Source: Heloderma charlesbogerti (lineage: Eukaryota > Chordata > Lepidosauria > Squamata > Helodermatidae). From it: a DNA stretch of 64,000 nt. The stretch is taken from NCBI GenBank assembly GCA_026122225.1, contig JANEZZ010001409.1, forward strand, positions 186,001 to 250,000, in the 5' to 3' direction. Both the position numbers and the translations under genes were made by a program. Shown piece by piece: positions 1,940-55,716 of the stretch (positions are counted from its first letter, which is position 1; every line of letters begins with the position of its first letter). The notes under the pieces were generated by a model. That model did not search any database and had not been told where the DNA came from. It saw only the letters and a list, made by a program, of their open reading frames with translations.

Positions 1940-2475
1940 TAGAGATGTACAAAACGACTTACCTGTTTCCTTTTGTGACATCTGCGGTGGGGGGGAGGCA
2001 CTCCGTCCCTCCCCTGAATTCCTCGCTGGCCGGTTCCACTCTGTGGCAACTCTGTGGAGCCGCCGGCCAGGGCCACCCGCAGCAACATCCGGCCACAGCT
2101 GGGCTGCGCAGGGACGCAAATGGCGGCTGCCATAGCCGCTGCCATTTGCGTCCTTTTTTTTGCTGTGATAGGCTATGTAAATATTTATGTAGCCTATCAC
2201 GGCCTCCGCAGGGATGCAAATGGCACCCCTATGTTAGCCATGAAGGGCTACGTAAGTATTTACGTAGCCTATCATGGGAAAAATCGTGAAGTGAATGGCA
2301 GCCACAGCCGCCATTCGCAAAGCAGTGCCAATGGCACCAGGTAGGTGCTCCGTTTTGCACACCTTTCGCTGGGTGGTGGGGCGGGGGGGCTTCGTTCTGC
2401 CACAGATTTCAGGGGGCCAAATGCACTAGTCTTCAGCCTCACTGAGATCCGTGGTGGAATTCTCCGCCATCCCTA
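1940..2475. mobile_element. Foldback hAT-like element A
   Basis: The 536-bp element is bounded by a perfect 8-bp duplication CCAGCAAC (1932-1939 and 2476-2483). The left end is TAGAGATGTACAAAACGACTTACCTG and the right end reads GAATTCTCCGCCATCCCTA. Inside are a beta palindrome (about 2112-2155, GCAAATGGCGGCTGC / GCAGCCATTTGC type), an alpha palindrome at 2163-2203 and a second alpha-like stem at 2248-2279. It has no transposase, so it is non-autonomous. The 8-bp TSD and YAGGGATG-type terminus are known hallmarks of the hAT superfamily. Confidence 0.88.
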
Positions 2476-3818: not shown

Positions 3819-4339
3819 TAGGGATGTACGAAAGTGACTTAGATTAACAAAATTTGATTCAAGGTGGGGGGGGAGGCACTCCGTCCCTCCCCCCTGAAAT
3901 TCTGGTGGGGGGGAGGCGCTCCATCCCTCTCCCCCGAAATTCTGGTGGTGGGGAGGTGCTCCGTCCCTCCCCCCCGAATCCTGGCCGGCCGGGTGTGCAA
4001 ATGGAGGCGGCTGTAGCGACCGCCGTTTGCGTCCCGGCAGTCAGCCGTGATAGGCTACGTAAATCTTTACATAGCCTATCATATTTTTTTTTTACTCGAA
4101 ATGGCAGCGGTGGCAGCCGGTCGGAAGACCAGCCGCCGCAGCTGCCGCAGCCGCCGCTGCTGAACTGCCGCCAAACCGCCACTGCCGCCGCCGCTGCCAG
4201 GAGGATTCACCCAGGGTAAGTCCCATCCTGGGCAGGGTGGGGGGGGGGTGGCAGACCATTTTGCCACCAATTTCGGGGGGCTGAATGCACTGGCATTTGG
4301 CCTCCCCGAGATTCGTGGTGAAATTCTCAGACATCCCTA
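3819..4339. mobile_element. Foldback hAT-like element B
   Basis: The 521-bp element is flanked by the perfect 8-bp TSD ATATAGGG (3811-3818, 4340-4347). The left end is TAGGGATGTACGAAAGTGACTTA and the right end is GAAATTCTCAGACATCCCTA. It carries three tandem CTCCGTCCCTCCCCCC-type blocks (3868-3980), a beta palindrome (about 3998-4040), an alpha palindrome (4047-4082) and a GCN-rich end. The short frames over it are GC-rich artefacts. The site CAGCCGGTCGGAAGACCAGC (4117-4136) is the unoccupied version of the target used by the nested element at 5968-6756. Confidence 0.88.
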
Positions 4340-4991: not shown

Positions 4992-5433
4992 CCATCCACC
5001 CTTAGACAACCATCCACCCTTAGTATCTGGACAGCAGAATAAACAGTAGGAGGACAGCTCTGTCAAGAAATATTAGGAAGGATGGCTTATGTGTCAGAAG
5101 CTGTTGGGAGGAGACAACAGCTGTCATCCAGAAACAGCCATCCCACTGGGATGTGGCAGAAAATGAGATGGGAAGAGGTGAGAGATAGGGATGTACGAAA
5201 ATGACTTACCTTTCATGGATTATGTTGATGGGGGGGGAGGCGTTCTGTCCCTCCCCCCAGAATCCTGGATGGGGGGGAGGCGATCCATTCCTCCCCCCCA
5301 GAATCCTCCATGGCCGGCTGTGCTCCGCAGCAGCTCCGCGGAGCAGCTGGCCAGGCCCAGCCCAGCCCAGAGCTGTCCGCAGCTGGATTTCTGGCCGCGG
5401 AGGGCTCTGGGGAAAAAAAATCAAACAACAACG

Positions 5434-5780
5434 CGTACACAAATGACGGTGGCTATGGCCGCCGCCATTTGCGTTCCTTATTTTTGGCTGTCTGAATCTA
5501 CGTAAATATTTACGTAGAATATGACGGCGAAAATAAAGGGGAATGCAAATAGCGTAGTGGGCGCTATTTGTGTCCCTTTTTGATTCACCGTTTTAGCCTT
5601 CGTAAATCTTTACGTAGGCTAAAACGGCGTATCAAAAAAAGACGCAAATAGCGCCCCCTATGCTATTTGCGTTCCCCTTTATTTTCGCCATCATAGTCTA
5701 CGTAAATATTTACGTGGACTAAGATGCCAAAAATAGGGAACGCAAATGGCGGCGGCCATAGCCGCCACCATTTGCGTACG
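5434..5780. repeat. 347-bp zero-spacer palindrome built of smaller palindromes
   Basis: The modules run beta-alpha-gamma-alpha-gamma-alpha-beta. The centre is the alpha stem CGTAAATCTTTACG at 5607/5608, and the outer beta stems (CGTACACAAATG on the left, CATTTGCGTACG on the right) end 173-174 bp from it. Each small module can fold alone, and the whole can fold as one hairpin. Differences between arms are mainly CpG to TpG/CpA changes. Confidence 0.85.
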
Positions 5781-5967
5781 TGGTTTGTTTGTTTTTTAAA
5801 CCCACCCAGCCATGATAGGCTACGTAAAGATTTATGTAGCCTATCACATCGTTTTTGTTTTTTTTTAAACCTAGCCATGATAGGCTACGTAAATCTTTAC
5901 ATAGCCTATCATGTCTTTTTTTTTTTTAACAAGACTGGAAATGGCGGCGGCGGCAGCCGGTTGGAAG

Positions 5968-6756
5968 TAGGGATGTCAGAGAATTCCGCCATGGATCTCG
6001 TGGAGGCTGAATGCCAGTGCATTCAGCCCCCGAAATCTGTGGTGGAACGGCCTGCCAACCCCACACCCCCCCCCCGGATCCCCCCCAGGAAGAGATTTAC
6101 CTGGGGTGGATCTTCCGGGTGGCGGCGGCGGCAGCTCCAGCAGCGGCTGTGGCTGCGGCGGCGGCTGGTCTTCTGACTGGCTGCTGCCGCCACCATTTGC
6201 AGTTTTTTTTTTTACTTTTTTAAAAAACTTACGTAGCCTAAAATGACTGGGTAAAAAAAAAGAAAAAAAGGCGTACGCAAATGGTGGTGGCTATGGCCGC
6301 CGCCATTTGCGTTCCTTATTTTGGGCTGTCTTAGTCTACGTAAATAATTACGTAGACTAAGACGGCGAAAATAAGGGGAACGCAAATAGCGTCCGCTACG
6401 CTATTTGCGTTCCCCTTATTTTTGCGATCATAGTCTACGTAAATATCTACATAGATTAAGACGGCTAAAAAGAAGGAATGAAAATGGCGGCGGCCATAGC
6501 CGCCATTTGCGTATGCGGGTTTTTGTTTTTTTTTTACCCAGAGCCCTCCGCATCCGGAAATCCGGCTGCAGGCGGCTCTGACCTGGCTGGGCCTGGCCGG
6601 CTGCTCCACGAAGCTGCCGCGGAGCACAGCCAGCCGCGGAGGATTCCTCCTCCAGAACGCCTCCCCCCCATCCAGGATTCCGGGGGGAGGGACGGAACGC
6701 CTCCCCCCCGCCATCAGCATAATCCACGACAGGTAAGTGATTTTCGTACATCCCTA
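5968..6756. mobile_element. Foldback hAT-like element C2, nested in element C
   Basis: This 789-bp copy runs from end 2 (TAGGGATGTCAGAGAATTCC) to end 1 (GTGATTTTCGTACATCCCTA), opposite to its host. The TSD is GTTGGAAG/GTCGGAAG (5960-5967, 6757-6764; 7 of 8). The unoccupied target is visible in element B at 4117-4136. It holds a GCN-rich segment, a 247-bp palindrome and a GC-rich end with CAGGTAAGTG just inside the terminus. Confidence 0.88.
6271..6517. repeat. 247-bp palindrome, beta-alpha-gamma-alpha-beta
   Basis: The centre lies in the gamma module (GGGGAACGCAAATAGCG / CGCTATTTGCGTTCCCC, midpoint 6395). TAGTCTACGTAAAT-type alpha stems lie on either side and beta stems close the ends (GCGTACGCAAATGG / CCATTTGCGTATGCG). 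The two arms are almost equal in length. Confidence 0.82.
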
Positions 6757-6966
6757 GTCGGAAGACCAGCTGCCGACGCTGCAGCCACCGCCGGAGCCAG
6801 AGCCCCTGCCGCCCGGAAGATCCGCCCCAGGTAAGTCTCGTCCCGGGGGGATCCGTGGGGGGGCAGGGGGCAGGCTGTTCCGCCACGGAGTTCGGGGGGC
6901 CAAATGTACTGGCATTCAGCCTCACCGAGATCCATGGTGGAATTCTCTGCCATCCCTAGTGAGAGA

Positions 6967-9580: not shown

Positions 9581-9964
9581 TTCAGAGAAGAGACAATTAA
9601 GAGAAACATGATAGCTGCTGTCAGGATTGATTCTGAGTGCAGGGTAGGGATGTCAGAGAATTCCTCCACTGATCTCGGTGAGGCCGAATGCCAGTGCATT
9701 CGGCCCCCCGAAATCTATGGCAGAATAGCCTGCCCCCCGGCCCCCCTGCGGATCCTCCCCGGGATGAGACTTACCTAGGGCAGATCTTTCAGGCGGCGGT
9801 GGCTCCGGCAGTGGCTTCAGCAGCAGCGGCTGCAGCGGCTGGTCTTCCGACCGGCTGCCGCCACTGCCATTTGCAGTCTTGTCGCTTTTTTTTTTTTGAC
9901 GTGATAGGCTACGTAAAGACTTATGTAGCCTATCACGTCTGGCTTACAAAACACACAAAAAATG

Positions 9965-10218
9965 CGTGTATGCAAATGGCGGCGGCTATGGCCGCTGCCA
10001 TTTGCGTTCCTTATTTTTGGCCGTCTTAGTCTATGTAAATATTTATGTAGACTAAGATGGCGAAAATAAGGGGAACGCAAATAGCGTAGCGGATGCTATT
10101 TGCGTTCCCCCTTATTTTCGCCGTCTTTAGTCAACGTAAATATTTATGTAGACTAAGACGGCCCAAAATAAGGGACGCAAATGGCGGCGGCCATAGCCGC
10201 CGCCATTTGCATACACAC
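9965..10218. repeat. 254-bp palindrome, beta-alpha-gamma-alpha-beta
   Basis: The centre is the gamma stem at 10070-10110 (GGGGAACGCAAATAGCG and its complement). Alpha stems of the TAGTCTA/TAGACTA type flank it, and beta stems with octamer-like ATGCAAAT / ATTTGCAT ends close it (CGTGTATGC left, GCATACACACG right). Confidence 0.82.
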
Positions 10219-10238
10219 GTGTTTTTTTTTAAAGCCAG

Positions 10239-11131
10239 TAGGGATGTCTGAGAATTTGTCCACGAATCTGTGGGAGGCTGAATGCCAACGCATTCGGCCC
10301 CCCGAAATTGGTGGAGAAACGGTCCGCCACCCCCCCACCCCCCGGGATGGGACTTACCTTGTGCAAATGTCACTAGCGGCGGCAGCTCCTGGCGGCGGTT
10401 TGGCGGCAGTTCAGCGGCGGTGGCTGCGGCGGCCAGTCTTCCGACCAGCTGCCGCCGCCGCCATTTCCAAGTAAAAACAACAACAACAACAACAAACGTG
10501 ATAGGCTATGTAAAGATTTACATAGCCTATCATGGCTAGACTTTCAAAAAACACCATGATAGGCTACATAAATGTTTACGTAGCCTATCACGGCTGACTT
10601 TGGAAAAAAAAAAAAAGCACGTACGCAAATGGCGGCGCCCATGGGCGCCACCATTTGTGTTCCTTATCTGGGCATGTGTAGTCTATGTAAACATTTACGT
10701 AGACTATGGAGAAAATAAGGGCAACGCTATTTGCGTTCCCCTTATTTTCGCCGTAGGCTACATAAATGTTTATGTAGACTACACGTGCCCAAATAAGGAC
10801 CACAAATGGCGGCGCCCATGGGCGCCGCCATTTGCATATGTGTTTTTTTTTCCGAAGTCAGCTGTGATAGGCTATGTAAACATTTACATAGCCTATCACG
10901 GCTGACTGCAGGGACGCAAACGGCGGCGGCTATGGCCGCCGCCATTTGCGTCCCGGCAGGACAGCAGGATTTGTGGCTGGAGGGATGGGGCGCCTCCTCC
11001 CCGGACAGATTTTTTTGGGGAGGGATGGGGCGCCTCCCCCCCGCCCAGAATTTCAGGGGGAGGGACGGAGCGCTTCCCCCCCACCACGAAGCAAGCTGCG
11101 GGATCAGGTAAGGGACTTTTGTCCATCCCTA
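10239..11131. mobile_element. Foldback hAT-like element D2, nested in element D
   Basis: This 893-bp element has a perfect TSD AAAGCCAG (10231-10238, 11132-11139). The left end is TAGGGATGTCTGAGAATTTG and the right end GGGACTTTTGTCCATCCCTA. Inside are two outer alpha stems (about 10499-10533 and 10557-10592), a roughly 226-bp palindrome (10617-10842) whose beta arms read GGCGCCCATGGGCGCC, another alpha (10865-10902) and a beta (10912-10957). It has no transposase. Confidence 0.87.
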
Positions 11132-11400
11132 AAAGCCAGACCTGATAGGCTATGTAAGTCTTTACGTAGCCTATCACGGCTGACTACAGGGATGCAAATA
11201 GTGGCGGCTACGGCTGCCGCCATTTACATCCCTGCTAGCCAGTGGCCGGATGTCTGGCTGCTGGCGGAGCTGGCCGATGGCTCCACGGAATCCCCGCAGA
11301 GGAGAGCCGGTCAGCGAGGATTCTGGGGGAAGGGACGGAACGCCTCCCCCCCCCAGCGGAACCTGGCAGAGCCAGGTAAGGGGACTTTCGTACATCCCTA

Positions 11401-11932
11401 GGGGAGATAGTTAGCAGCTCAGATTCAGAAGGGGAGCAGCCAGAACTGGGGGAGGTTATTCACAGGCCAGTTCAGAAATGGATAGGCGTGCTTCTCAGGT
11501 TACCAGCTCCCAGATGGCCAGGCATGAAGCCTCATCCTCAGCCCACTCTGTGAGAAACAGCGAGCAGGAGGAGGAGGAGGCACTTGAGATCTGTCACCTA
11601 AGGGATGCCAGGCAGAGATGCAGAGCTAAGAGGGAAACTTCAGGGGCGGAGCTTAGATGTTCGTACCAGTTAGCAATGTAGGGAAGCAGCAGGTGAGGGG
11701 CAGAGCCTCCCTCTCTAAGTTAGCCTAGTCAGACAGCCACCTTTTCAAACTGTGGGCAACCCTCGTTTATTCCCATTTGAATCCCCTGGAGGCATTCCTT
11801 TGTAGCCAGAGAGTCTTCGAGTATTTGCATCTGTAATGAACCTGAGAATAATGAATTAAAAGTGTGAGACTGAAGCCTCTCTTTTTGTGTGTTGTGAGTG
11901 CTGGAGGAAAGGGGCGGGGGCAAGGGAATCCT
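11401..11932. other. Unassigned sequence with LTR-like 3' end
   Basis: The tail AATAATGAATTAAAAGTGTG followed by GAAGCCTCTCTTTTTGTGTG and ending GGGAATCCTGACA resembles the R-U5 end of an LTR. No matching LTR start, polypurine tract or second copy is seen, so this is tentative. Confidence 0.3.
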
Positions 11933-13062: not shown

Positions 13063-14112
13063 AGCTCTTAAAAGGACGCTGTATCTCAGACCCATCACAA
13101 GACATTATGCTTGCTGCTCTGAGGCATGTTGCCATTTGGTTCCATTCTCAGAAACTCTTCCTGGATGGTTTGAGTTTCATGGAAATGCCATCAGTCCCTA
13201 CATGGGTTTTTATGGGGCCCTGGCTGTGGGTTGTCACTAGGGATGTTTTGAGAGTCTGTGGCAGAGGTGGTGGTGAAGTCCAGTGGGCTACCCTTGCCTG
13301 CCCTCCTGGACCCCTCTTGCTGAGCCACAGAACACTTGCAGACCTGCTCTGTGAGCTTCTTGCAGCTCAGCAAGCACCTGGCAGTAGGGATGCACGGACT
13401 GTGTAAAATCTGCTCCGTCTGTGTTTCACGGATTGTCAGGCACCTTTTGTTCCACCATCCACCCACAGACAGATGCAATTTTTTTTCCTCACGTGGAAAA
13501 ATATGCAAATAGCTACGTAAATATTTATGTAAGTATTTACATAATTTACCCTAGTACATCACATTTTGTGTATTGTCCCCATTCCATTCAACATTTCCTC
13601 AGCAGAAACTTACATATTTTCCTATGAATTTATATGTGTAAATTTTGGGAAAGTAAAAAAAAAAAATCATCCAAAACTCCATGGACTCCACGAGGCCCAA
13701 GGGGGTCACTCCACAGCAGATTCCGCAGGCCAGATTCTTAGAAATCCAAGCTCATTTTAGTCCATCTTGAATTTCTCCAGCATCCCTACCTGGCAGCTCT
13801 TAAAAGGATGCTGTATCTCAGACCCATCACAAGACATCATGTTTGCTGCTCTGAGGCATGTTGCCATTTGGTTCCATTCTCAGAAACTCTTCTTGGATGG
13901 CTTGGGTTTCATGGAAACACCATCAGTCCCTACATGGGTTTTCATGGGGCCCTGGCTGTGGGTCGTCACTGGGGATGTTGCAAGAGTCTGTGTTGGTGAT
14001 GGTCCAATGAGCTCCCCCTTGCCTGCCCTCCTGGACCCTGCTCACGGAACCCCGGGACACTTGCGGACCTGCTCTGCGAGCATCTGGCAGCTCGGCGAGC
14101 ACCTGGCAGCTG
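13063..14112 (+). repeat. Tandem duplication of a 320-bp unit, split at its junction by a MITE
   Basis: Unit 1 (13063-13384) and unit 2 (13795-14112) align from AGCTCTTAAAAGGACGCTG / AGCTCTTAAAAGGATGCTG through to GAGCACCTGGCAG. The offset is 732 bp, of which 412 bp are the M element at 13385-13788 and one TSD copy. The unit includes part of a hAT-like end (TAGGGATGTTTTGAGAGTC in unit 1, TGGGGATGTTGCAAGAGTC in unit 2); a matching right end (GGGCATCCCTA) follows at 14157-14167. Confidence 0.82.
13385..13788 (+). mobile_element. M-family MITE, 404 bp
   Basis: It has a perfect 8-bp TSD CCTGGCAG (13377-13384, 13789-13796). The ends are TAGGGATGCACGGACTGTG and GAATTTCTCCAGCATCCCTA. At 13512-13551 it holds the alpha-like run TACGTAAATATTTATGTAAG, which continues into TATTTACATAA. 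It is non-coding. Confidence 0.88.
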
Positions 14113-27739: not shown

Positions 27740-28620
27740 CAGGGATGGCGGAGAATTTCTCCCCGAAACTTCGGGGGGCCGAGCGCCAACGTGTTCGGCC
27801 CCCCGAACAAGTTTCGGGGAGAAATTCTCCGCACCCCCCGCACCCCCCCCCCGGGACGGGACTTACCTTTCCCGAATGTCCCTCCTGGCAGCGGATCCGG
27901 CCGGCGGTTCGTCGGGTCTTCGTCCGGGGCGGGAGCGGCAGCCGGTCCTTTGACCGGCTGCCGCTGCCGCCATTCCAATAAAAGAAAAAAAAACACGCTC
28001 CCGTGATAGGCTACGTGACGATTAACGTAGCCTATCACCGCTAGATTTGAAAAGTCAGCCGTGATAGGCTACGTAAATCGTCACGTAGCCTATCACGGGT
28101 GACTTTAAAAAAAAAAAAAGCACGTACGGATAATGGTGGCCCCCATAGGGAGCCGCCATTCACGTTCCTTATTTGGTCGCAGTAGTCTACATAAAGATTA
28201 CGTAGACTACGGCGAAAATAAGGGCAACGCTATTTGCGTTGCCCTATGGGTGCCGCCATTTGCGTACACGCTTTTTTTTTTTTTAAGTCACCTGAGATAG
28301 GCTACGTGACGATTTACGTAGCCTATCACGGCTGACTTTGCAGATCTAGCCATGATAGGCTACGTTAATCGTCACGTAGCCTATCACTGGGGCGTTTTTT
28401 TTTTAACTTTTAATTTCACGGCCGGGCGAGGTGAGGTGCCTCCTCCCCGGCCTGAATTTCGGCCGGGCGAGGCGGGAAGCCTCCCCTCCGGCTTGAATTT
28501 CGGCCGGGTGAGGCGGGAAGCCTCCCCCCCTGGCCTGAACTTCGCGGGGAGAGCAGCGAAGCGCCTCCCCCCCACCGTGAAAAGCTGCGAGACCAGGTAA
28601 GTGACTTTCGTGCACCCCTA
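27740..28620. mobile_element. Foldback hAT-like element inside BovB (empty site known)
   Basis: The 881-bp insertion lies in a BovB whose uninterrupted sequence is visible at 18455-18485 (minus strand) and 63030-63060. The 8-bp TSD CAAAGAAG (27732-27739, 28621-28628) is perfect. The ends are CAGGGATGGCGGAGAATTTC and GTGACTTTCGTGCACCCCTA. The left end contains a subterminal hairpin (GGAGAATTTCTCCCCGAAAC ... GTTTCGGGGAGAAATTCTCC). The array is alpha-alpha-beta-alpha-beta-alpha-alpha, followed by four GGCCGGGCGAGG-type blocks and CAGGTAAGTG. It has no ORF of its own. Confidence 0.93.
28003..28389. repeat. Palindrome array of the foldback element in BovB
   Basis: Alpha stems lie at 28003-28038, 28061-28096, 28182-28210 (centre), about 28293-28330 and 28351-28389. 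Beta stems lie at 28121-28166 and about 28223-28271. The order is symmetric about the central alpha. The outer pairs use a TACGTGACGATTAACGTA-type loop instead of TACGTAAATATTTACGTA, and these variants pair with each other across the centre, as in the copy at 35993-36387. Confidence 0.8.
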
Positions 28621-31615: not shown

Positions 31616-32119
31616 TAGGGGTGGAGGAGAATTCTGCCACAGACTCCAATGAGGCCAGATTCTTTAGAATCCTGCCCCCCGGAGTCCGTGGCAGAACGGA
31701 CCATTCCCCCCCGCCACCCTGCAAACGTCATCCCGGACAGACCCTACCTGGTGCTGGCCAGGTCCAGGTCTGTCTGCTGAGTCTTTGCATCCACTGCCAG
31801 TGTGCGGATGCAAATGGTGTCTGGCATAGTGGATGCCATTTGTGTCCCTGGTCTTTTTGTGATAGGCTACGTAAATATTTATGTAGCCTATCACAAAAGG
31901 ACCAGGGATGCAAATGGTGTCTGCTATACCGGATGCCAGTTGCGTCCGCACACCGGTAGGGCAGCGGATGAAAGTCCGGCTGCAGATGGGCCCGGCTGGC
32001 AGCTCCGTGGACTCACCGCAGAGCGGAGCTGACTGGGGAGATTCCGGGGGGAGGAACAGATCACCTCCCCCCCTGTGGACCCCCCAGTTGGATCGGTGAG
32101 TGGGGTTCGTACACCCCTA
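31616..32119. mobile_element. Foldback hAT-like element E
   Basis: The 504-bp element has TSD TACTGGAG/TACTGGAA (31608-31615, 32120-32127; 7 of 8). The ends are TAGGGGTGGAGGAGAATTC and GGGGTTCGTACACCCCTA. The inner array is one beta-alpha-beta palindrome (31802-31951). The left end has a subterminal inverted repeat around GGATTCTAAAG / CTTTAGAATCC. Its close relative is element Y (54322-55708). Confidence 0.85.
31802..31951. repeat. 150-bp palindrome, beta-alpha-beta
   Basis: The arms run from GTGCGGATGCAAATGG to the mirror end at GTTGCGTCCGCAC. The centre lies at 31876/31877 in the alpha stem, and both arms are exactly 75 bases long. Confidence 0.85.
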
Positions 32120-34829: not shown

Positions 34830-35267
34830 TAGGAATGGGGCAAAATTCATTCAGGTTACAAACTTCCCTAGTTTTTCACTTTTGAATCACTATGCAAACT
34901 GAAATTCAATTCTCCTTCGAAATTCACACTTTTCTGAATTTTGCAATGGAGTTATCCAATCAAACAAATGCATACAAAATGTCTGTGTTAGGGTAAAATC
35001 ACATTCAAAAATGCATTATGTTAGGAAAATGGCTTACAAAAAGTCTGTATATTAGGAAAATACACCTACAAAAATATTTTGTTTAGAGAAATGTGAACAC
35101 AAGTGCTTAATGAATTGTCATACAAACTTAAAAATCAAATGATCCAACTTCAGGGTGGGCTAAACTCAAGATAGGAGAAATTCTCAATGTTTGAGGTAAA
35201 GCAAACCTTAAGATTTAGAAAATGAGAACCTGAGAGAAATCAATATTGTCAGATTCATCCATCCCTA
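34830..35267. mobile_element. AT-rich hAT-like MITE, 438 bp
   Basis: It has a perfect 8-bp TSD CTTTTGGC (34822-34829, 35268-35275). The ends are TAGGAATGGGGCAAAATTC and CAGATTCATCCATCCCTA. The interior repeats TTAGG-AAAATG-CTTACAAAAA-type phrases. It is non-coding and of a different family from the foldback elements, but has the same terminal signature. Confidence 0.82.
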
Positions 35268-35739: not shown

Positions 35740-36540
35740 TAGGGATGGTGGAGAATTTCTCCCCGAAACTTCGGGGGGCTGAGCGCCAACATGTTCGGCC
35801 CCCCGAACATGTTTCAGGGAGAAATTCTCCGCACTCCCCCACCCCCCGCACCCCCCCCGGGACAGGACTTACCTTTGCCGAATGTCCCTCCCAGCGGCGG
35901 GTCCGGCCGGTGGTTCGGCGGGTGTTCGTGCGGGGTGGGAGGGGCAGATCCACTGCTGCCGCCGCCATTCCAATAAAAGAAAAAAAAAAACACCCCCGTG
36001 ATAGGCTACGTGATGATTAACGTAGCCTATCATGGCTAGATTCGCAAAGTCAGCTGTGATAGGCTACGTAAATCGTCATGTAGCCTATCATGGGTGACTT
36101 TAAAAAAAAAAAGTGCGTACGGATAATTGCGGCCCCCATAGGGAGCCGCCATTCCCGTTCCTTATTTGGTTGCTGTAGTCTACGTAAATCTTTACGTAGA
36201 CTACAGCGACCAAATAAGGAACGGGAATGGCGGCTCCCTATGGGGGCTGCCATTTGCGTACGCGCTTTTTTTTTTTTTAAAGTCATCCGTGATAGGCTAC
36301 GTGATGATTAACGTAGCCTATCATGGCTGACTTTGCAGATCTAGCCATGATAGGCTACGTTAATCATCACGTAGCCTATCACGGGGGCGTTTTTTGTTTT
36401 TTTTTTAAACTTTGGAGTTCATGGCCGGGCGAGGCGGGAAGCCTCCCCCCCCGGCCTGAACTTCGTGGGGGGAACAGCGAAGTGCCTCCCCCCCCACGAA
36501 CAAGCTCCGATGACAGGTAAGTGACTTTCGTCCACCCCTA
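35740..36540. mobile_element. Foldback hAT-like element F
   Basis: The 801-bp element has a perfect TSD AAAGAAAG (35732-35739, 36541-36548). The ends are TAGGGATGGTGGAGAATTTC and GTGACTTTCGTCCACCCCTA. The left end has the same subterminal hairpin as the copy in BovB (27740). The central 395 bp are a near-perfect palindrome. The right end carries GGCCGGGCGAGGCGGGAAGC and CAGGTAAGTG. It is the same subfamily as 27740-28620. Confidence 0.92.
35993..36387. repeat. 395-bp near-perfect palindrome without spacer
   Basis: The centre is at 36189/36190 inside GTCTACGTAAATCTTTACGTAGAC. The arms extend 197-198 bp each side, from CCCCCGTGATAGGC to GCCTATCACGGGGG, through alpha-alpha-beta on one side and beta-alpha-alpha on the other. 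By eye the arms differ at only about a dozen positions, including GATAATTGCGG against GCAAATGGCAG. Confidence 0.9.
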
Positions 36541-45975: not shown

Positions 45976-46917
45976 TAGGGATGTCAGAGAATTCCGCCAC
46001 AGATTTCAGTGAGGCCAAATGCCAGTGCATTCGGCCCCCTGAAATTCATGGTGGAACGAAGCCCCCGCCCCCTCAACCCACGAAAGACGTGCGAAATGGA
46101 GCACTTACCTGCTGCTGTCCACACTGACTTGCGAATGGCGGCCGCCCTGCGGCTGCCATTCACTTCTTCATCTTAGCCGTGATAGGCTATGTAAGCAGTT
46201 ACGTAGCCTATCACGGCAAGCCAAAAACAAAACAAAAAAAACAGCGTATGCAAATGGCGGCGGCTATGGCAGCCACCATTTGGGTTCCCTTTTTTTTGCT
46301 GTTTTAGCCTATGTAAATATTTACGCAAATATTTTTACGCAAATATTTACGTAAGCTATTATGGTTAAAAAAAAGGGGAACACAAATAGCATAGTGGGTG
46401 ACATTTGTGTTCCTTTCCCCCCCTGCCGTTTTAGCCTACGTAAATATTTATGTAAGCTATTATGGCAAAAAAAAAAAAAGGAATGCAAATAGCGTCCACT
46501 ATGCTATTTGCATTCCCCTTTTTTTTCACCATAATAGCTTATATAAATATTTGCGTAGGCTAAAACGGCAGCGGGGGGGGGGAAGGAATGCAAATGGTGC
46601 CCACTACGCTATTTGCGTTCCCCTTTTTTTTCACCATAATAGCTTATGTAAATATTTGCGTAGACTAAAACAGCGAAAAAAAGAGAACGCAAATGGCAGC
46701 CGCTGTAGCCGCCGCCATTTGCGTATGCTGTTTTTTTTTTTTTTTGGTTTGCTTTGATAGGCTATGTAAATACTTATGTAGCCTATCACGGCAGCTTCGC
46801 AGGACGCAAATGGTGGCCCGTCCGCGGCCAGGGAGGATTCCGGGGGGAGCGACTAAGCGCCTCCCCCCCACCGCAAATCCAAGCTGCGAAAAGGTAAGTG
46901 ACTTTTGTACATCCCTA
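45976..46917. mobile_element. Foldback hAT-like element G
   Basis: The 942-bp element has a perfect TSD TATTTAGC (45968-45975, 46918-46925). The ends are TAGGGATGTCAGAGAATTCC (end 2) and GTGACTTTTGTACATCCCTA (end 1). It has the longest module series, with six alpha-like, three gamma and four beta-like stems. Its ACTTACCTGC (left) and AAGGTAAGTG (right) motifs face outward. Confidence 0.92.
46175..46795. repeat. About 620-bp palindrome whose long arms match better than its modules
   Basis: The centre lies in the gamma stem at 46480-46516. Flanking alpha-like modules are internally imperfect: CCGTTTTAGCCTACGTAAAT is followed by ATTTATGTAAGCTATTATGG. The left arm sequence nevertheless reappears as its exact reverse, TTGCGTAGGCTAAAACGGC, on the other side of the centre. 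A 24-base insertion of CAAATATTTTTACG type near 46325 makes the left arm longer. Confidence 0.82.
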
Positions 46918-48956: not shown

Positions 48957-49475
48957 TAGGGATGTTGGAGGAATCCATCCAGGAGGTCAAGCCTGCCGAG
49001 CTTTGGGAGACTCAGCCTTCCAGACCTTGGATCGCTTGAGCCGGGCCAGCTCGCGGGCATCTGCCACCGCCATTGCCAGCTGTTCTGCTCAACTCTCTCA
49101 CTCTAGAGAGTTGTGCAGACTGGCTGGCAAGTGATCATGGCAGCGGCAACGGCAGGTGGCGGGCAAGTCCAGTGCTGATCACTGTGTGCAAAACTCTCCC
49201 TTCTCCCTGATAGGCCCCAGCAGAGAAAAGAGAAGCTTTTGGGCACAATGACCAGCAGCAGGAATTCCGGCACCATCCACTGTGTGCAAAAGCCTCCTTT
49301 CTCCCTCCCAGTGCCCCAGCAGAGAGAAGGGACACTTGCGTGCAATGACTGGAGAGTTCGTGAGTTCCGGCAGGGAGCCTGCAGCTTGGCTTGTGAACGC
49401 AAGCCAAGCCGGAGGCTCCGGGGGGAATCCATCAAGCCCCAAGAGGGCCAGACTTCCCCACACCAGACATCCCTA
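48957..49475. mobile_element. hAT-like MITE, 519 bp (Q)
   Basis: It has a perfect TSD GCTCTCTG (48949-48956, 49476-49483). The ends are TAGGGATGTTGGAGGAATCC and CCACACCAGACATCCCTA. Two imperfect direct repeats of CTGTGTGCAAAACTCTCCCTTCTCCCT / CTGTGTGCAAAAGCCTCC type lie inside (about 49183 and 49281). The frames over it are artefacts. Confidence 0.83.
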
Positions 49476-51317: not shown

Positions 51318-52175
51318 TAGGGATGTCAGAGAATTCCGCCATGGATCTCGGTGAGGCTGAATGCCAGTGCATTCGGCCCCCCGACATCCATGGTGGAGCG
51401 AAGCCCCCCAGCCCCCACCCCACAAAAGGCATGCGAAACGGGACACCTACCTGCTGCCGTTCGCGCGGCTTTGCGAATGGTGGCCGCGTCCACCATTTGC
51501 TTTTTCATTATAGCCGTGATAGGCTACATAAATACTTACGTAACCTATCACGGCTAATGCAGGAACGCCATTTGCATCCCTGCAGAAGCCGTGACAGGCT
51601 GCGTAAGTATTTACGTAGCCTATCACGGCCAAAAAAAGAGAACGCAAATGGTGGCGGCTACAGCGGCTGCCATTTGTGTCCCCTTTTTTTTGGCCGTGAT
51701 AGACTACGTAAATATTTACGTAGCCTATTACGGCAAAAGAGAGGGGCACAAATGGCGTAGTGGCCACCATTTGCGCCCATCTCTTTTGCTGTAATAGGCT
51801 ATGTAAAAATTCATGTAGCCTATCATGGCCAAAAAAAAAAGGGAATGCAAATGGCGGCCGCCGTAACCGCCGTCATTTGTGTTTGCTGTTTTTTTTTCTC
51901 TTTTTGCCGTGATAGACTATGTAAATATTTACGTAGCCTATCATGGCAAAATACAGGGATGCAAATGACGGCAGCTACGGCAGCCGCCATTTGCGTCCTT
52001 GTGCAGGCTGCCTAGCGGCCGGATGTCTGGCTGCGGGCAGCCCCAGCCGGTGGCTCTGCAGAATCGCCGCGGAGTGGAGCCGGCCAGAGAGAATTTTGGG
52101 AGGAGGGGCGGAGCGCCTCCCCCCCCACCGTGAATGTCACCCTTCGAAAAGGTAAGTGACTTTCTTACATCCCTA
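51318..52175. mobile_element. Foldback hAT-like element H
   Basis: The 858-bp element has a perfect TSD CCAATGAA (51310-51317, 52176-52183). The ends are TAGGGATGTCAGAGAATTCC (end 2) and GTGACTTTCTTACATCCCTA (end 1). Five alpha stems (about 51512, 51588, 51691, 51787 and 51905) alternate with beta stems between 51471 and 52000, symmetric about 51743-51781. It has no transposase. Confidence 0.92.
51471..52000. repeat. Palindrome array of element H
   Basis: The alpha stems are mostly of the CCGTGATAGGCTACGTAA type. The central stem is GGCACAAATGGCGTAGTGG-CCACCATTTGCGCCC. The next beta on each side (51639-51681 and 51842-51880) pairs with the other across the centre. Confidence 0.78.
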
Positions 52176-52947: not shown

Positions 52948-53652
52948 TAGGGATGTACGAATCCCTTACCTGGCTCTGCGCAGGGGCATCCGCGGTGGGG
53001 GGGAGGCGCTCCATCCCTCCCCCTGGAATCCTGCCCGGCCAGCTTCGCTCTGCAGCCAAGCCGTGGAGCCGCCGGCTGGCTCCGGCCACCCACAGACGGA
53101 CATCCAGCTGCTGGGCAGCGCTGCAGGGATGCAAATGGCAGCTATCATAGCCGCCACCATTTGCATCCCTGTATTGAGCCGTGATAGGCTACATAAATAT
53201 TTACGTAGCCTATCACGGCAGGGGAAAAAACCCCCAGCGTATGCAAATGGCGGTAGCCGCCGCCATTTGTGTACACTGGGTTCCCCCCCCCGCCGTGATA
53301 GGCTATGTAAATACTTACGTAGCCTATAATGGCCTCTGCAGGGACGCAAATGGCATCCCTGCATTATCCGTGATAGGCTATGTAAGTATTTATGTAGCCT
53401 ATCATGGTTATTGAGAAGATGAAACGAATGGCGGCCACAGGACAGCCGCCATTCGCATAGCAGCGTGGACAGGAGAAGGTAAGTGCTCTGTTTTGCGTGC
53501 CTTTCGTGGGGTGGGGGCGGCGGGGACTTCATCCCGCATGCCTTTCATGTGTTGGGGGGGTGGGGGCTTCCTTCCACGACAGATTTTGGGGGGCCGAATG
53601 CACTGGCATTTGGCCTCATCGAGCTCCGTCGCGGAATTCTTTGATATCCCTA
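52948..53652. mobile_element. Foldback hAT-like element I
   Basis: The 705-bp element has a perfect TSD GTGGCATG (52940-52947, 53653-53660). End 1 (TAGGGATGTACGAATCCCTTACCTGG) is on the left, and the right end finishes GGAATTCTTTGATATCCCTA. Between 53105 and 53455 lie beta, alpha, beta, alpha, half-beta, alpha and beta-like stems. It is inserted in a J-like element that continues at 53661. Confidence 0.9.
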
Positions 53653-54324: not shown

Positions 54325-55212
54325 TAGGGATGTACGAAAATTCCAACACGGATCTCGGGGAGGCCGAATGCCAGTGCATTTGGCCCCCCGAAATCGGTGG
54401 TGGAATGGCCCCCCCACCGCCCCCCTCAGGATGAGACTTACCTTGGGCGGATCTTCCTGGCGGCGGCAGCTCCGGCGGCGGCTGCGGTGGCAGTTCGGCG
54501 GCAGTTCGGCGGCTGTTCGGCGGCGGCGGCAGCTGCGGCAGCTGCGGCGGCTGTGGCGGCCGGTCTTCTGACCGGCTGCCGCTGCTGCCATTTCCAGTTA
54601 AAAAACAAACAAACAAATGTGATAGGCTACGTAAAGATTTACGTAGCCTATCACAGCTAGGTTTTTTAAAAAAACCCGTGATAGGCTACATAAATCTTTA
54701 CATAGCCTATCACGGCTGACTTAAAAACAAAAACAAAAAAACCCACGCGTACACAAATGCTACGCTATATAAATAATCTATATAAATGTAGACACTACGC
54801 TATTTGCGTTCCCCTTATTTTCGCCGTCTTAGTCTACGTAAATGTTTACGTAGACTAAGACGTGCCAAAATAAGGAACGTGCATTGTTGTTTTTTTTAAA
54901 GTCAGCCGTGATAGGCTACGTAAATGTTTACGTAGCCAATCGTGGCTGACTGCAGGGATGCAAATGGCGGCGGCTACAGCCACCGCCATTTGCGTCCCTG
55001 CTAGCCAGTGGCCGGATGTCCGGCTGCTGGTGGAGCCGGCTGGTGGCTCCGCAGAATCGCTGCGGAGCACAGCTGGCTGGCCAGGATTCCGGGGGGGGGG
55101 GAGGAACGGAGCGCCTCCCCCCTTGGAGAGGATTCCGGGGGGAGGGATGGAATGCCTCCCCCCCAACCATAAACATAATCCACGAAAGGTAAGTACCTTT
55201 CGTACATCCCTA
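54325..55212. mobile_element. Foldback hAT-like element X
   Basis: The 888-bp element has a perfect TSD TGACCTAG (54317-54324, 55213-55220), made of the last five bases of Y's flanking repeat and the first three bases of Y. The ends are TAGGGATGTACGAAAATTCC and ACCTTTCGTACATCCCTA. Alpha stems lie at about 54620-54655, 54677-54715, 54828-54865 and 54905-54947, with a beta at 54955-54999. A 27-base block near 54760-54790 (GCTATATAAATAATCTATATAAATGTAG) replaces part of the usual beta/gamma. Confidence 0.92.
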
Positions 55213-55393
55213 TGACCTAGGGATGGTGGAGAATTCTGCCACGGACTCCAATGAGGACTCCAATGATGCTTCTAAAGAATCCGGCCACTCGGAGTCTGTG
55301 GCAGCATGGACCACCCACCTCCACTACCCAGCGAAGTTTCCCCAGAATGGGTCCTACCTGCCACCAGCCGGGTCCAGTGCTGGTCCATTGCTG

Positions 55394-55551
55394 GTCTGCG
55401 GAAGCAAATGGCGTCCGGCGTAGCGGACGCCATTTATGTCCCTTCTTTTTGCCATGATAGGCTACGTAAATCTTTATGTAGCCTATCACAGCAAAGAGCA
55501 GGGATGCAAATGGTGTGTTCGCTATGCCAGACCCCATTCGCGTCCGCAGAC
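55394..55551. repeat. 158-bp palindrome, beta-alpha-beta, of element Y
   Basis: The arms run from GTCTGCGGAAGCAAATGGCG to GCGTCCGCAGAC around an alpha stem (TGATAGGCTACGTAAATC, TTTATGTAGCCTATCA). The layout equals that of 31802-31951. Confidence 0.83.
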
Positions 55552-55716
55552 TGGCAGTGAACGGAAGTCCGGCTGTGGATGGACCCGGCCGGTGGCTCCA
55601 TGGACTCGCCATGGAGCGGAGCTGGCCAGGGAGGATTCCGGGGGGAGGGACCGATCACCCCCCCATGAACCCCCCTAGCAGACTGCAAGTGGGTTTTGTA
55701 CACCCCTAGGATGACC

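What the first reader, a model, noticed from the sequence alone, without database searches (positions are those of the whole stretch)
5434..5780. Palindrome of palindromes: nested symmetry at two scales
Seven small palindromic modules (beta-alpha-gamma-alpha-gamma-alpha-beta) are laid out so that the series is itself palindromic about 5607/5608. This two-level design recurs in at least six other copies (6271-6517, 9965-10218, 10617-10842, 28003-28389, 35993-36387, 46175-46795). I know of foldback and hAT MITEs with long inverted repeats, but not of a described family with this modular hierarchy. This is the best candidate here for an undescribed element type.
Basis: partly seen in the sequence, partly recalled or inferred. 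Interest (0 to 1): 0.88.

Follow-up and report, generated by a model that had tools for sequence, protein, structure and literature searches.

The report
Jumping gene with nested palindrome core
The 'palindrome of palindromes' is real: it is the middle of a young, abundant, non-coding 'jumping' DNA element of the hAT type, and the two halves of its giant hairpin look as if they have been copied from one another more than once, an unusual twist on a familiar kind of mobile DNA.

Summary
5434-5780 has seven palindromic modules and is a large palindrome about 5607/5608. It is the core of a non-coding hAT-type element, 5186-6958, with ends TAGGGATG...CATCCCTA and 8-bp target duplications (GTGAGAGA). 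A sibling element (5968-6756) interrupts it. Of 39 copies of this subfamily, 27 have target duplications matching at 7 or 8 of 8 bases. Four siblings in fetched loci have empty sites. The symmetry is not just repetition of palindromes: inverted self-matches beat direct ones in 12 of 14 window elements, and loops are inverted in 39 of 39 copies. In three subfamilies the arms of one copy are more alike than arms of different copies, which suggests arm-to-arm copying. Best reading: a hAT MITE superfamily whose interior grew by fold-back inverted duplication and was re-symmetrised by hairpin-templated copying. The hAT assignment is strong; the copying mechanism is inferred. The mobilising transposase was not linked, no genome-wide census was possible, and Repbase/Dfam could not be checked. 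Verdict: new variant of a known kind.

The parts
5186..6958 (+). Focal non-autonomous hAT-type element (976 bp without the nested sibling and one of its target duplications)
   Evidence: Ends TAGGGATG / CATCCCTA, target duplication GTGAGAGA on both sides, 8/8; agrees with the ends of the other copies
5178..5185 (.). Left target-site duplication GTGAGAGA
6959..6966 (.). Right target-site duplication GTGAGAGA
5434..5780 (.). Large palindrome core, beta-alpha-gamma-alpha'-gamma-alpha-beta, axis 5607/5608
5437..5474 (.). beta module 1
5482..5533 (.). alpha module 1 with spacers (approximate bounds)
5541..5575 (.). gamma module 1 (approximate bounds; orientation-labelled loop, consensus TAGCGGGC)
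5587..5628 (.). central alpha' module, on the axis (approximate bounds)
5640..5675 (.). gamma module 2 (approximate bounds; consensus loop GCCCGCTA, inverted relative to gamma 1)
5682..5733 (.). alpha module 3 with spacers, inverted relative to alpha 1 (approximate bounds)
5740..5777 (.). beta module 2
5804..5927 (.). two further alpha modules in direct tandem (65-bp period), outside the large palindrome
5968..6756 (-). nested sibling element (five-module core 6271-6517) inserted in the focal one, target duplication GTTGGAAG/GTCGGAAG
   Evidence: 7/8 match; the consensus of focal-family copies is uninterrupted there
9645..11400 (-). sibling element (core 9965-10218), interrupted by 10239-11131; no target duplication (GTGCAGGG / GGGGAGAT)
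   Evidence: ends; palindrome score 135 (that script used 9646-11401, one base off)
10239..11131 (-). sibling element, target duplication AAAGCCAG 8/8 (core 10617-10842)
   Evidence: score 119
27740..28620 (-). sibling element, target duplication CAAAGAAG 8/8 (core 28003-28389)
   Evidence: score 147
35740..36540 (-). sibling element, target duplication AAAGAAAG 8/8; alpha-alpha pairs mirrored about axis 351 (element coordinates)
   Evidence: score 173
45976..46917 (-). sibling element, target duplication TATTTAGC 8/8
   Evidence: score 118
51318..52175 (-). sibling element, target duplication CCAATGAA 8/8
   Evidence: score 97
52948..53652 (+). sibling element, target duplication GTGGCATG 8/8
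   Evidence: score 53
31616..32119 (-). sibling element (beta-alpha-beta core), target duplication 7/8
   Evidence: score 56
54325..55212 (-). sibling element, target duplication TGACCTAG 8/8; only weak large symmetry, direct self-match better than inverted
   Evidence: score 32
55218..55677 (-). short sibling, no target duplication found; moderate symmetry
   Evidence: score 45 (that script used 55213-55677)
1940..2475 (+). short sibling element, target duplication CCAGCAAC 8/8; weak large symmetry
   Evidence: score 36
3819..4339 (+). short sibling with one beta and one alpha, no large palindrome; target duplication ATATAGGG 8/8
   Evidence: score 20

Best explanation
It is a non-coding, non-autonomous hAT-type transposon (a MITE of about 0.95 kb) of a large modular superfamily. 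SHOWN: Ac/Ds-like TAGGGATG ends; 8-bp target duplications; empty sites for siblings; many dispersed young copies; a core made of about 50-bp-spaced palindromes laid out as one large, truly inverted palindrome; and arms of one copy more alike than arms of different copies. INFERRED: transposase supplied in trans by an autonomous hAT element cuts and pastes the element. The interior arose because a broken or stalled end inside a small palindrome folds back on itself, primes synthesis and yields an inverted duplication centred on that palindrome. The same hairpin geometry later lets one arm be copied onto the other, so the symmetry is renewed in new subfamily founders instead of simply decaying. 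Likely sources of such breaks and hairpins are aborted gap repair after excision, or the hairpins that hAT excision leaves in flanking DNA when siblings sit inside siblings.
For: hAT-type mobility: target duplications at 7/8 or better in 27 of 39 focal-subfamily copies, 22 exact; window elements with exact duplications; four sibling inserts whose joined flanks align to an uninterrupted copy of another repeat, with exact 8-bp duplications. The Ac/Ds ends are given as C/TAGGGATGAAA and TTTCATCCCTA with 8-bp duplications (PMC3260210, passage): the outer 8 bases of our ends are the same, the next three differ. Young: non-CpG divergence 1.5%, CpG 16.7% in 39 copies. True inversion: consensus core 96% identical to its reverse complement; gamma loops inverted in 39 of 39; best inverted self-match per arm beats the best direct self-match in 12 of 14 window elements; mirrored module pairs inverted>direct 22 of 22, non-mirrored 22 of 56, in nine elements. 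Arms evolve together: within- versus between-copy arm mismatch at non-CpG pairs 0.0395 v 0.0418 (0 of 2000 permutations as low; n=39), 0.095 v 0.121 (82 of 2000; n=5), 0.096 v 0.151 (23 of 2000; n=6); at all pairs 1, 27 and 12 of 2000. Five complementary non-CpG double changes against 0.6 expected; 6 double changes against 0-1 at ten slid positions. Arm trees unite both arms of the L017/L019 clade (0.998), L072 (0.986) and L025 (0.901). Fold-back priming near inverted repeats makes inverted duplications in yeast mutants (PMC10622511, abstract); a 246-bp interrupted palindrome does so in E. coli mutants (PMC3315005, abstract); Ac/Ds excision passes through hairpins that leave palindromic footprints (PMC5873905, passages).
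Against: No autonomous partner was tied to these ends. The intact hAT-like frames found sit in a longer repeat whose ends were not reached, and no TAGGGATG left end lies in the 1.76 kb held upstream of that frame in the one copy read. Most copies do not show sister arms in the trees: 2 of 5 and 1 of 6 copies do. The effect in the 39 young copies is small, two of its five complementary changes are the same change in two copies, and the other two families have only 5 and 6 copies. Arm copying could partly be an assembly or polishing artefact. Several short siblings lack the large palindrome yet carry target duplications, so it is not needed for movement. Two of 14 window elements match themselves better directly than inverted. 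The 22-of-22 count is favoured by choosing each axis as the best inverted one.
Confidence: 0.7

Rival explanations
1. Trivial symmetry: two palindromic units repeated head to tail (alpha, beta, alpha, beta...) by slippage or unequal crossing over read the same on both strands, so no higher-order event is needed.
For: Modules alternate at about 50-bp pitch in many siblings; some arms do contain direct tandem copies; 2 of 14 elements (3819, 54325) have direct self-matches better than inverted ones.
Against: Inverted self-match per arm exceeds the best direct one in 12 of 14 elements (139 v 71 in the focal one). Gamma loops are inverted in 39 of 39 copies. Mirrored pairs favour the inverted orientation 22 of 22 (partly by choice of axis). 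Consensus arms are 96% identical although the middle alpha differs from the outer two.
Confidence: 0.07
2. Selection for pairing: the large hairpin or cruciform has a function for the element (bringing the two ends together, an RNA hairpin, or a binding platform for dimeric host proteins), so compensatory changes in the arms reflect selection, not copying.
For: Very stable fold, z -30.75; complementary non-CpG double changes; regular module pitch.
Against: Siblings without the large palindrome have moved: of those scoring below 50 (4 of 14 in the window, 5 of 13 in fetched loci) all but one (55218) carry target duplications. Selection on single inserted copies should be weak (inference). No Rfam match in the window at gathering scores.
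Confidence: 0.15
3. One ancient inverted duplication made the palindrome and everything since is simple decay and spread of subfamilies.
For: Core structure is shared by many siblings; most copies show no sister arms in the trees.
Against: Within-copy arms are closer than between-copy arms in three subfamilies; joint arm clades L017/L019, L072 and L025; different subfamilies have different axes and module numbers.
Confidence: 0.15
4. It is a foldback-type element (Galileo/FB-like) rather than a hAT MITE.
For: Long inverted repeats built of smaller repeats; Galileo has restructured long TIRs (PMC4168063, passages).
Against: The inverted repeat is internal; the terminal match is short, and the target duplication is 8 bp with Ac/Ds-like ends, whereas Galileo duplicates 7 bp and has long terminal repeats.
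Confidence: 0.03

Closest known systems
Ac/Ds-type hAT elements and their non-autonomous derivatives (maize Ds1/Ds2; PMC3260210, passages read)
   Same: Ends that begin C/TAGGGATG and end CATCCCTA, 8-bp target duplications, short non-coding derivatives with unrelated filler inside
   Different: The three inner bases of the 11-bp TIR differ; the word palindrom- does not occur in that paper's main text; AAACGG subterminal repeats were not tested here
Mar, hAT MITE of Drosophila (PMC3517528, abstract and outline read)
   Same: Non-coding hAT MITE, conserved target duplications, recent mobilisation
   Different: Described as an internal-deletion derivative (Buster group); no hierarchical palindrome is mentioned in the abstract
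Galileo, P superfamily (PMC4168063, passages read)
   Same: Long inverted repeats that vary in length and take in other sequence and tandem repeats
   Different: Inverted repeats are terminal; other superfamily; 7-bp target duplication
Palindrome- and fold-back-driven inverted duplications (yeast PMC10622511, E. coli PMC3315005; abstracts and outlines read)
   Same: Small inverted repeats seed larger inverted duplications centred on themselves
   Different: Chromosome rearrangements in mutants, not a transposon interior

Membership tests
hAT superfamily, non-autonomous (MITE) | 8-bp target-site duplication | tested here: met
   27 of 39 copies match at 7/8 or 8/8, 22 exact; window elements
hAT superfamily, non-autonomous (MITE) | Short terminal inverted repeats of hAT type | tested here: met
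   TAGGGATG...CATCCCTA; the outer 8 of 11 bases equal the Ac/Ds ends as printed
hAT superfamily, non-autonomous (MITE) | Precise insertion, shown by empty sites | tested here: met
   Four sibling inserts in three loci: L057 and L058 clean at the junction, the two in L056 with a mismatch or small indels at or near it; none tested for the focal insertion itself
hAT superfamily, non-autonomous (MITE) | Autonomous hAT partner with the same ends | tested here: inconclusive
   150 of 150 scored PF05699 places (871 candidates) pass the cut-off, some in open frames of about 880 aa, but the ends of that repeat were not reached
hAT superfamily, non-autonomous (MITE) | Subterminal transposase-binding repeats | not tested
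   CTTACC lies 17-21 bp from the left end in 11 of 14 window elements and GGTAAG or GGTAGG 118-175 bp from the right end in 13 of 14, but binding is unknown
Foldback / Galileo-like elements | Long terminal inverted repeats | tested here: not met
   The long inverted repeat lies about 250 bp from the left end and 360 bp from the right; the terminal match is short
Described Repbase/Dfam family | Sequence match to an entry | not testable with these tools
   No repeat library available

The most novel reading that the evidence does not exclude
A transposon superfamily with a self-renewing palindrome: hairpins inside the element (made by fold-back synthesis, or by the hAT cut itself when siblings nest in siblings) keep re-copying one arm onto the other and add new palindromic shells. 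Nested symmetry is then a standing outcome of the element's own life cycle, and it generates new subfamilies.
Probability: 0.33. Interest if true: 0.72.

Novelty: new variant of a known kind. Interest (0 to 1): 0.5.

Why it matters
Where the internal sequence of MITEs comes from is a long-standing puzzle. This superfamily preserves a graded series (one alpha; beta-alpha-beta; five and seven modules; mirrored alpha pairs) of palindrome growth in dispersed, datable copies. It could be used to test, in a vertebrate-sized genome, whether hairpin-templated synthesis builds and homogenises palindromes. It also supplies a dense set of natural palindromes for studies of fragile sites and assembly errors.

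Tried and rejected
Trivial-symmetry model: tested and rejected as the whole explanation. Axis-on-module-centre as evidence for fold-back: dropped, because any alternating array of two palindromes forces it. Foldback membership: not met. Autonomous partner: the PF05699 search gave a multi-copy hAT-like gene of about 880 aa; joined pieces of one contig did not reach the ends of its repeat, so no link is claimed. That repeat does supply empty sites. Genome census by pattern: the request did not complete, so copy number is known only as 3647 first-look candidates, 40 of them scored, and 8 target-duplication-validated elements in 102.5 kb of flanks (L022 and L023 are duplicate loci, so one is counted twice there). 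Rows dropped: L023 before the arm and target-duplication counts; L023, L073 and L001-L008 as duplicates. One search used nine of the 14 window elements; 1940, 3819, 45976, 54325 and 55218 were left out for want of a clear single axis or of modules, and each axis was the best inverted one, which favours the result; one search is the fairer control and uses all 14. One search found 41 elements, 40 with modules; 23 were labelled seven-module and not scored, 17 were scored, and I dropped L011, L021, L037 and L039 because they are focal search hits that the label missed (compare), leaving 8 of 13 at 50 or more. One search used too strict a filter and missed looped axes; crashed; one search replaces both. 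Rfam (gathering scores) and tRNA scans of the window were empty. Ten literature searches: in the listings I saw no such family, but searches listed only 15 of 77, 27 and 102 papers, 30 and 49 asked about mechanism, and the library lacks most subscription papers and all repeat databases.

Full report
Observation. It holds seven small palindromes at about 50-bp spacing and is itself a palindrome about 5607/5608. It aligns to its own reverse complement at 87.4%. Its self-complement score is 258, against at most 31 in 200 dinucleotide shuffles, and it folds as one hairpin with z -30.75.

What it belongs to. A whole-genome search (2.3 Gb, 3246 contigs) gave 3647 first-look candidates, of which 40 were scored, the window's own among them; all 40 matched over nearly the full core, the best other one at 93%. 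I fetched 20 of these with about 3 kb of flank and the other 19 with 1 kb. In the 20 longer loci and the window, shared sequence falls away at both sides of a unit of about 1 kb. Its consensus is 956 bp, beginning TAGGGATGTACGAAAGT and ending CTGACATCCCTA. Of 39 copies (40 rows less the duplicate L023) 27 have 8-bp target duplications matching at 7 or 8 positions, 22 exactly; 12 do not, or their ends were not recognised. In the window the focal element is 5186-6958 with GTGAGAGA on both sides. A sibling, 5968-6756, is inserted in it with its own 7-of-8 duplication. Four sibling inserts in three fetched loci have exact 8-bp duplications and an uninterrupted counterpart elsewhere; two are clean at the junction and two have a mismatch or small indels at or near it.

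Age. Among 39 copies non-CpG positions differ from consensus by 1.5% and CpG positions by 16.7%, so the subfamily is young. These are the best matches to the query, so the figure is biased low.

Is the large symmetry more than repetition? An alternating array of two palindromes would look symmetric for free. Three tests speak against that as the whole story. First, the best inverted self-match per arm beats the best direct self-match in 12 of 14 window elements, for example 139 v 71 in the focal one and 173 v 74 at 35740; the exceptions are 3819 and 54325. Second, the gamma loops, which are not palindromic, are inverted relative to each other in 39 of 39 copies. Third, in nine window elements module pairs mirrored about the main axis match better inverted in 22 of 22 cases (median difference +30.7), non-mirrored pairs in 22 of 56 (median -0.9); this count is helped by having chosen each axis as the best inverted one, and five elements without a clear axis or enough modules were left out. 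The consensus arms are 96% identical.

How general. A large palindrome of score 50 or more (six shuffles of the focal element: 7-10) is present in 10 of 14 module-bearing elements in the window, the focal one included, and in 8 of 13 others in fetched loci (after the exclusions told under rejected steps). Eight of the nine that fall short are 633 bp or less; the ninth is 54325-55212. The number of shells varies: one beta and one alpha (3819-4339), beta-alpha-beta (31616-32119), five modules, seven modules, and mirrored alpha-alpha pairs (27740-28620, 35740-36540).

Do the arms evolve together? If one old inversion were followed by independent decay, an arm should be no closer to its partner in the same copy than to the opposite arm of any other copy. 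Pairing arms at random between copies keeps copy-specific rates and tests this. Over all mirrored pairs, within-copy mismatch is 0.0922 v 0.0978 for the seven-module set (n=39; 1 of 2000 permutations as low), 0.125 v 0.155 for the 35740 family (n=5; 27 of 2000), and 0.155 v 0.204 for the five-module family (n=6; 12 of 2000). Without CpG sites the counts are 0, 82 and 23 of 2000; without the two copies L046 and L019, which carry three of the double changes, the seven-module count is 1 of 2000. Double changes at mirrored non-CpG positions number 6 (1.2 expected), against 0-1 at each of ten slid positions. Five of the 6 are complementary against 0.6 expected; two of these five are the same change in two copies. 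In arm trees (FastTree local supports), both arms of the L017/L019 clade (0.998), of L072 (0.986) and of L025 (0.901) group together; the other copies do not show this. I read this as repeated copying of one arm onto the other, at least in subfamily founders. Selection for pairing and assembly polishing are not excluded.

Mechanism. Fold-back synthesis from a broken end near inverted repeats yields inverted duplications in yeast mutants (PMC10622511, abstract). A palindrome seeds inverted duplications around itself in E. coli mutants (PMC3315005, abstract). Ac/Ds excision passes through hairpins and leaves palindromic footprints, with arms up to 20 nt in budding yeast (PMC5873905, passages). 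Siblings of this superfamily sit inside siblings twice in this window, so both routes are open. I favour fold-back or template switching during aborted gap repair. The footprint route is a speculation worth testing, since many single module arms are of similar length (about 14-30 nt).

Relation to known families. The ends begin C/TAGGGATG and finish CATCCCTA, as in Ac/Ds, whose printed ends are C/TAGGGATGAAA and TTTCATCCCTA (PMC3260210, passage). By ends, target duplication and insertion it is a non-autonomous hAT element. The genome carries many hAT-like genes, some with open frames of about 880 aa, and the part of that frame in L075 matches PF05699, but I could not tie that gene to these ends. 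I saw no account of a nested-palindrome hAT MITE in the listings of ten searches of an open-access library. Repeat databases were not available, so prior naming of the family is quite possible.

Verdict. Observation confirmed; not a new element type, but an unusual variant of a hAT MITE with evidence for arm-to-arm copying.

Noticed in passing
window 5204-5211 and 6829-6836; recurring in sibling elements: Outward-facing motifs that read as strong 5' splice donors (AG/GTAAGT) lie near both ends: ACTTACC on the left in 33 of 39 copies and GGTAAGT on the right in 31 of 39. They may be subterminal transposase sites or exon donors.
   Followed up: partly
L078 and L075 (one contig) and relatives among L048-L077: A large multi-copy element or gene family with a hAT-like open frame of about 880 aa in some copies, an upstream exon-like stretch and long conserved flanks; its ends were not reached.
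   Followed up: partly
window 13385-13788, 34830-35267, 48957-49475: Other short elements with TAGGGATG-type ends (34830 with one mismatch) and exact 8-bp target duplications but different terminal sequence further in: several MITE families may share these ends.
   Followed up: no
window 54325-55212 and 55218-55677: One sibling is inserted exactly at the edge of another: its target duplication TGACCTAG includes the first three bases of the neighbour.
   Followed up: no
L049 168-800, L050 983-1496: Short siblings with intact target duplications that match, in the same orientation, only about one half of the 35740 element, with the match ending near its axis, as hairpin-provoked deletions might leave.
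   Followed up: no
window 3867-3978, 5231-5307, 10979-11082, 28419-28573: A 40-41-bp G-rich tandem repeat in the outer part of several siblings.
   Followed up: no
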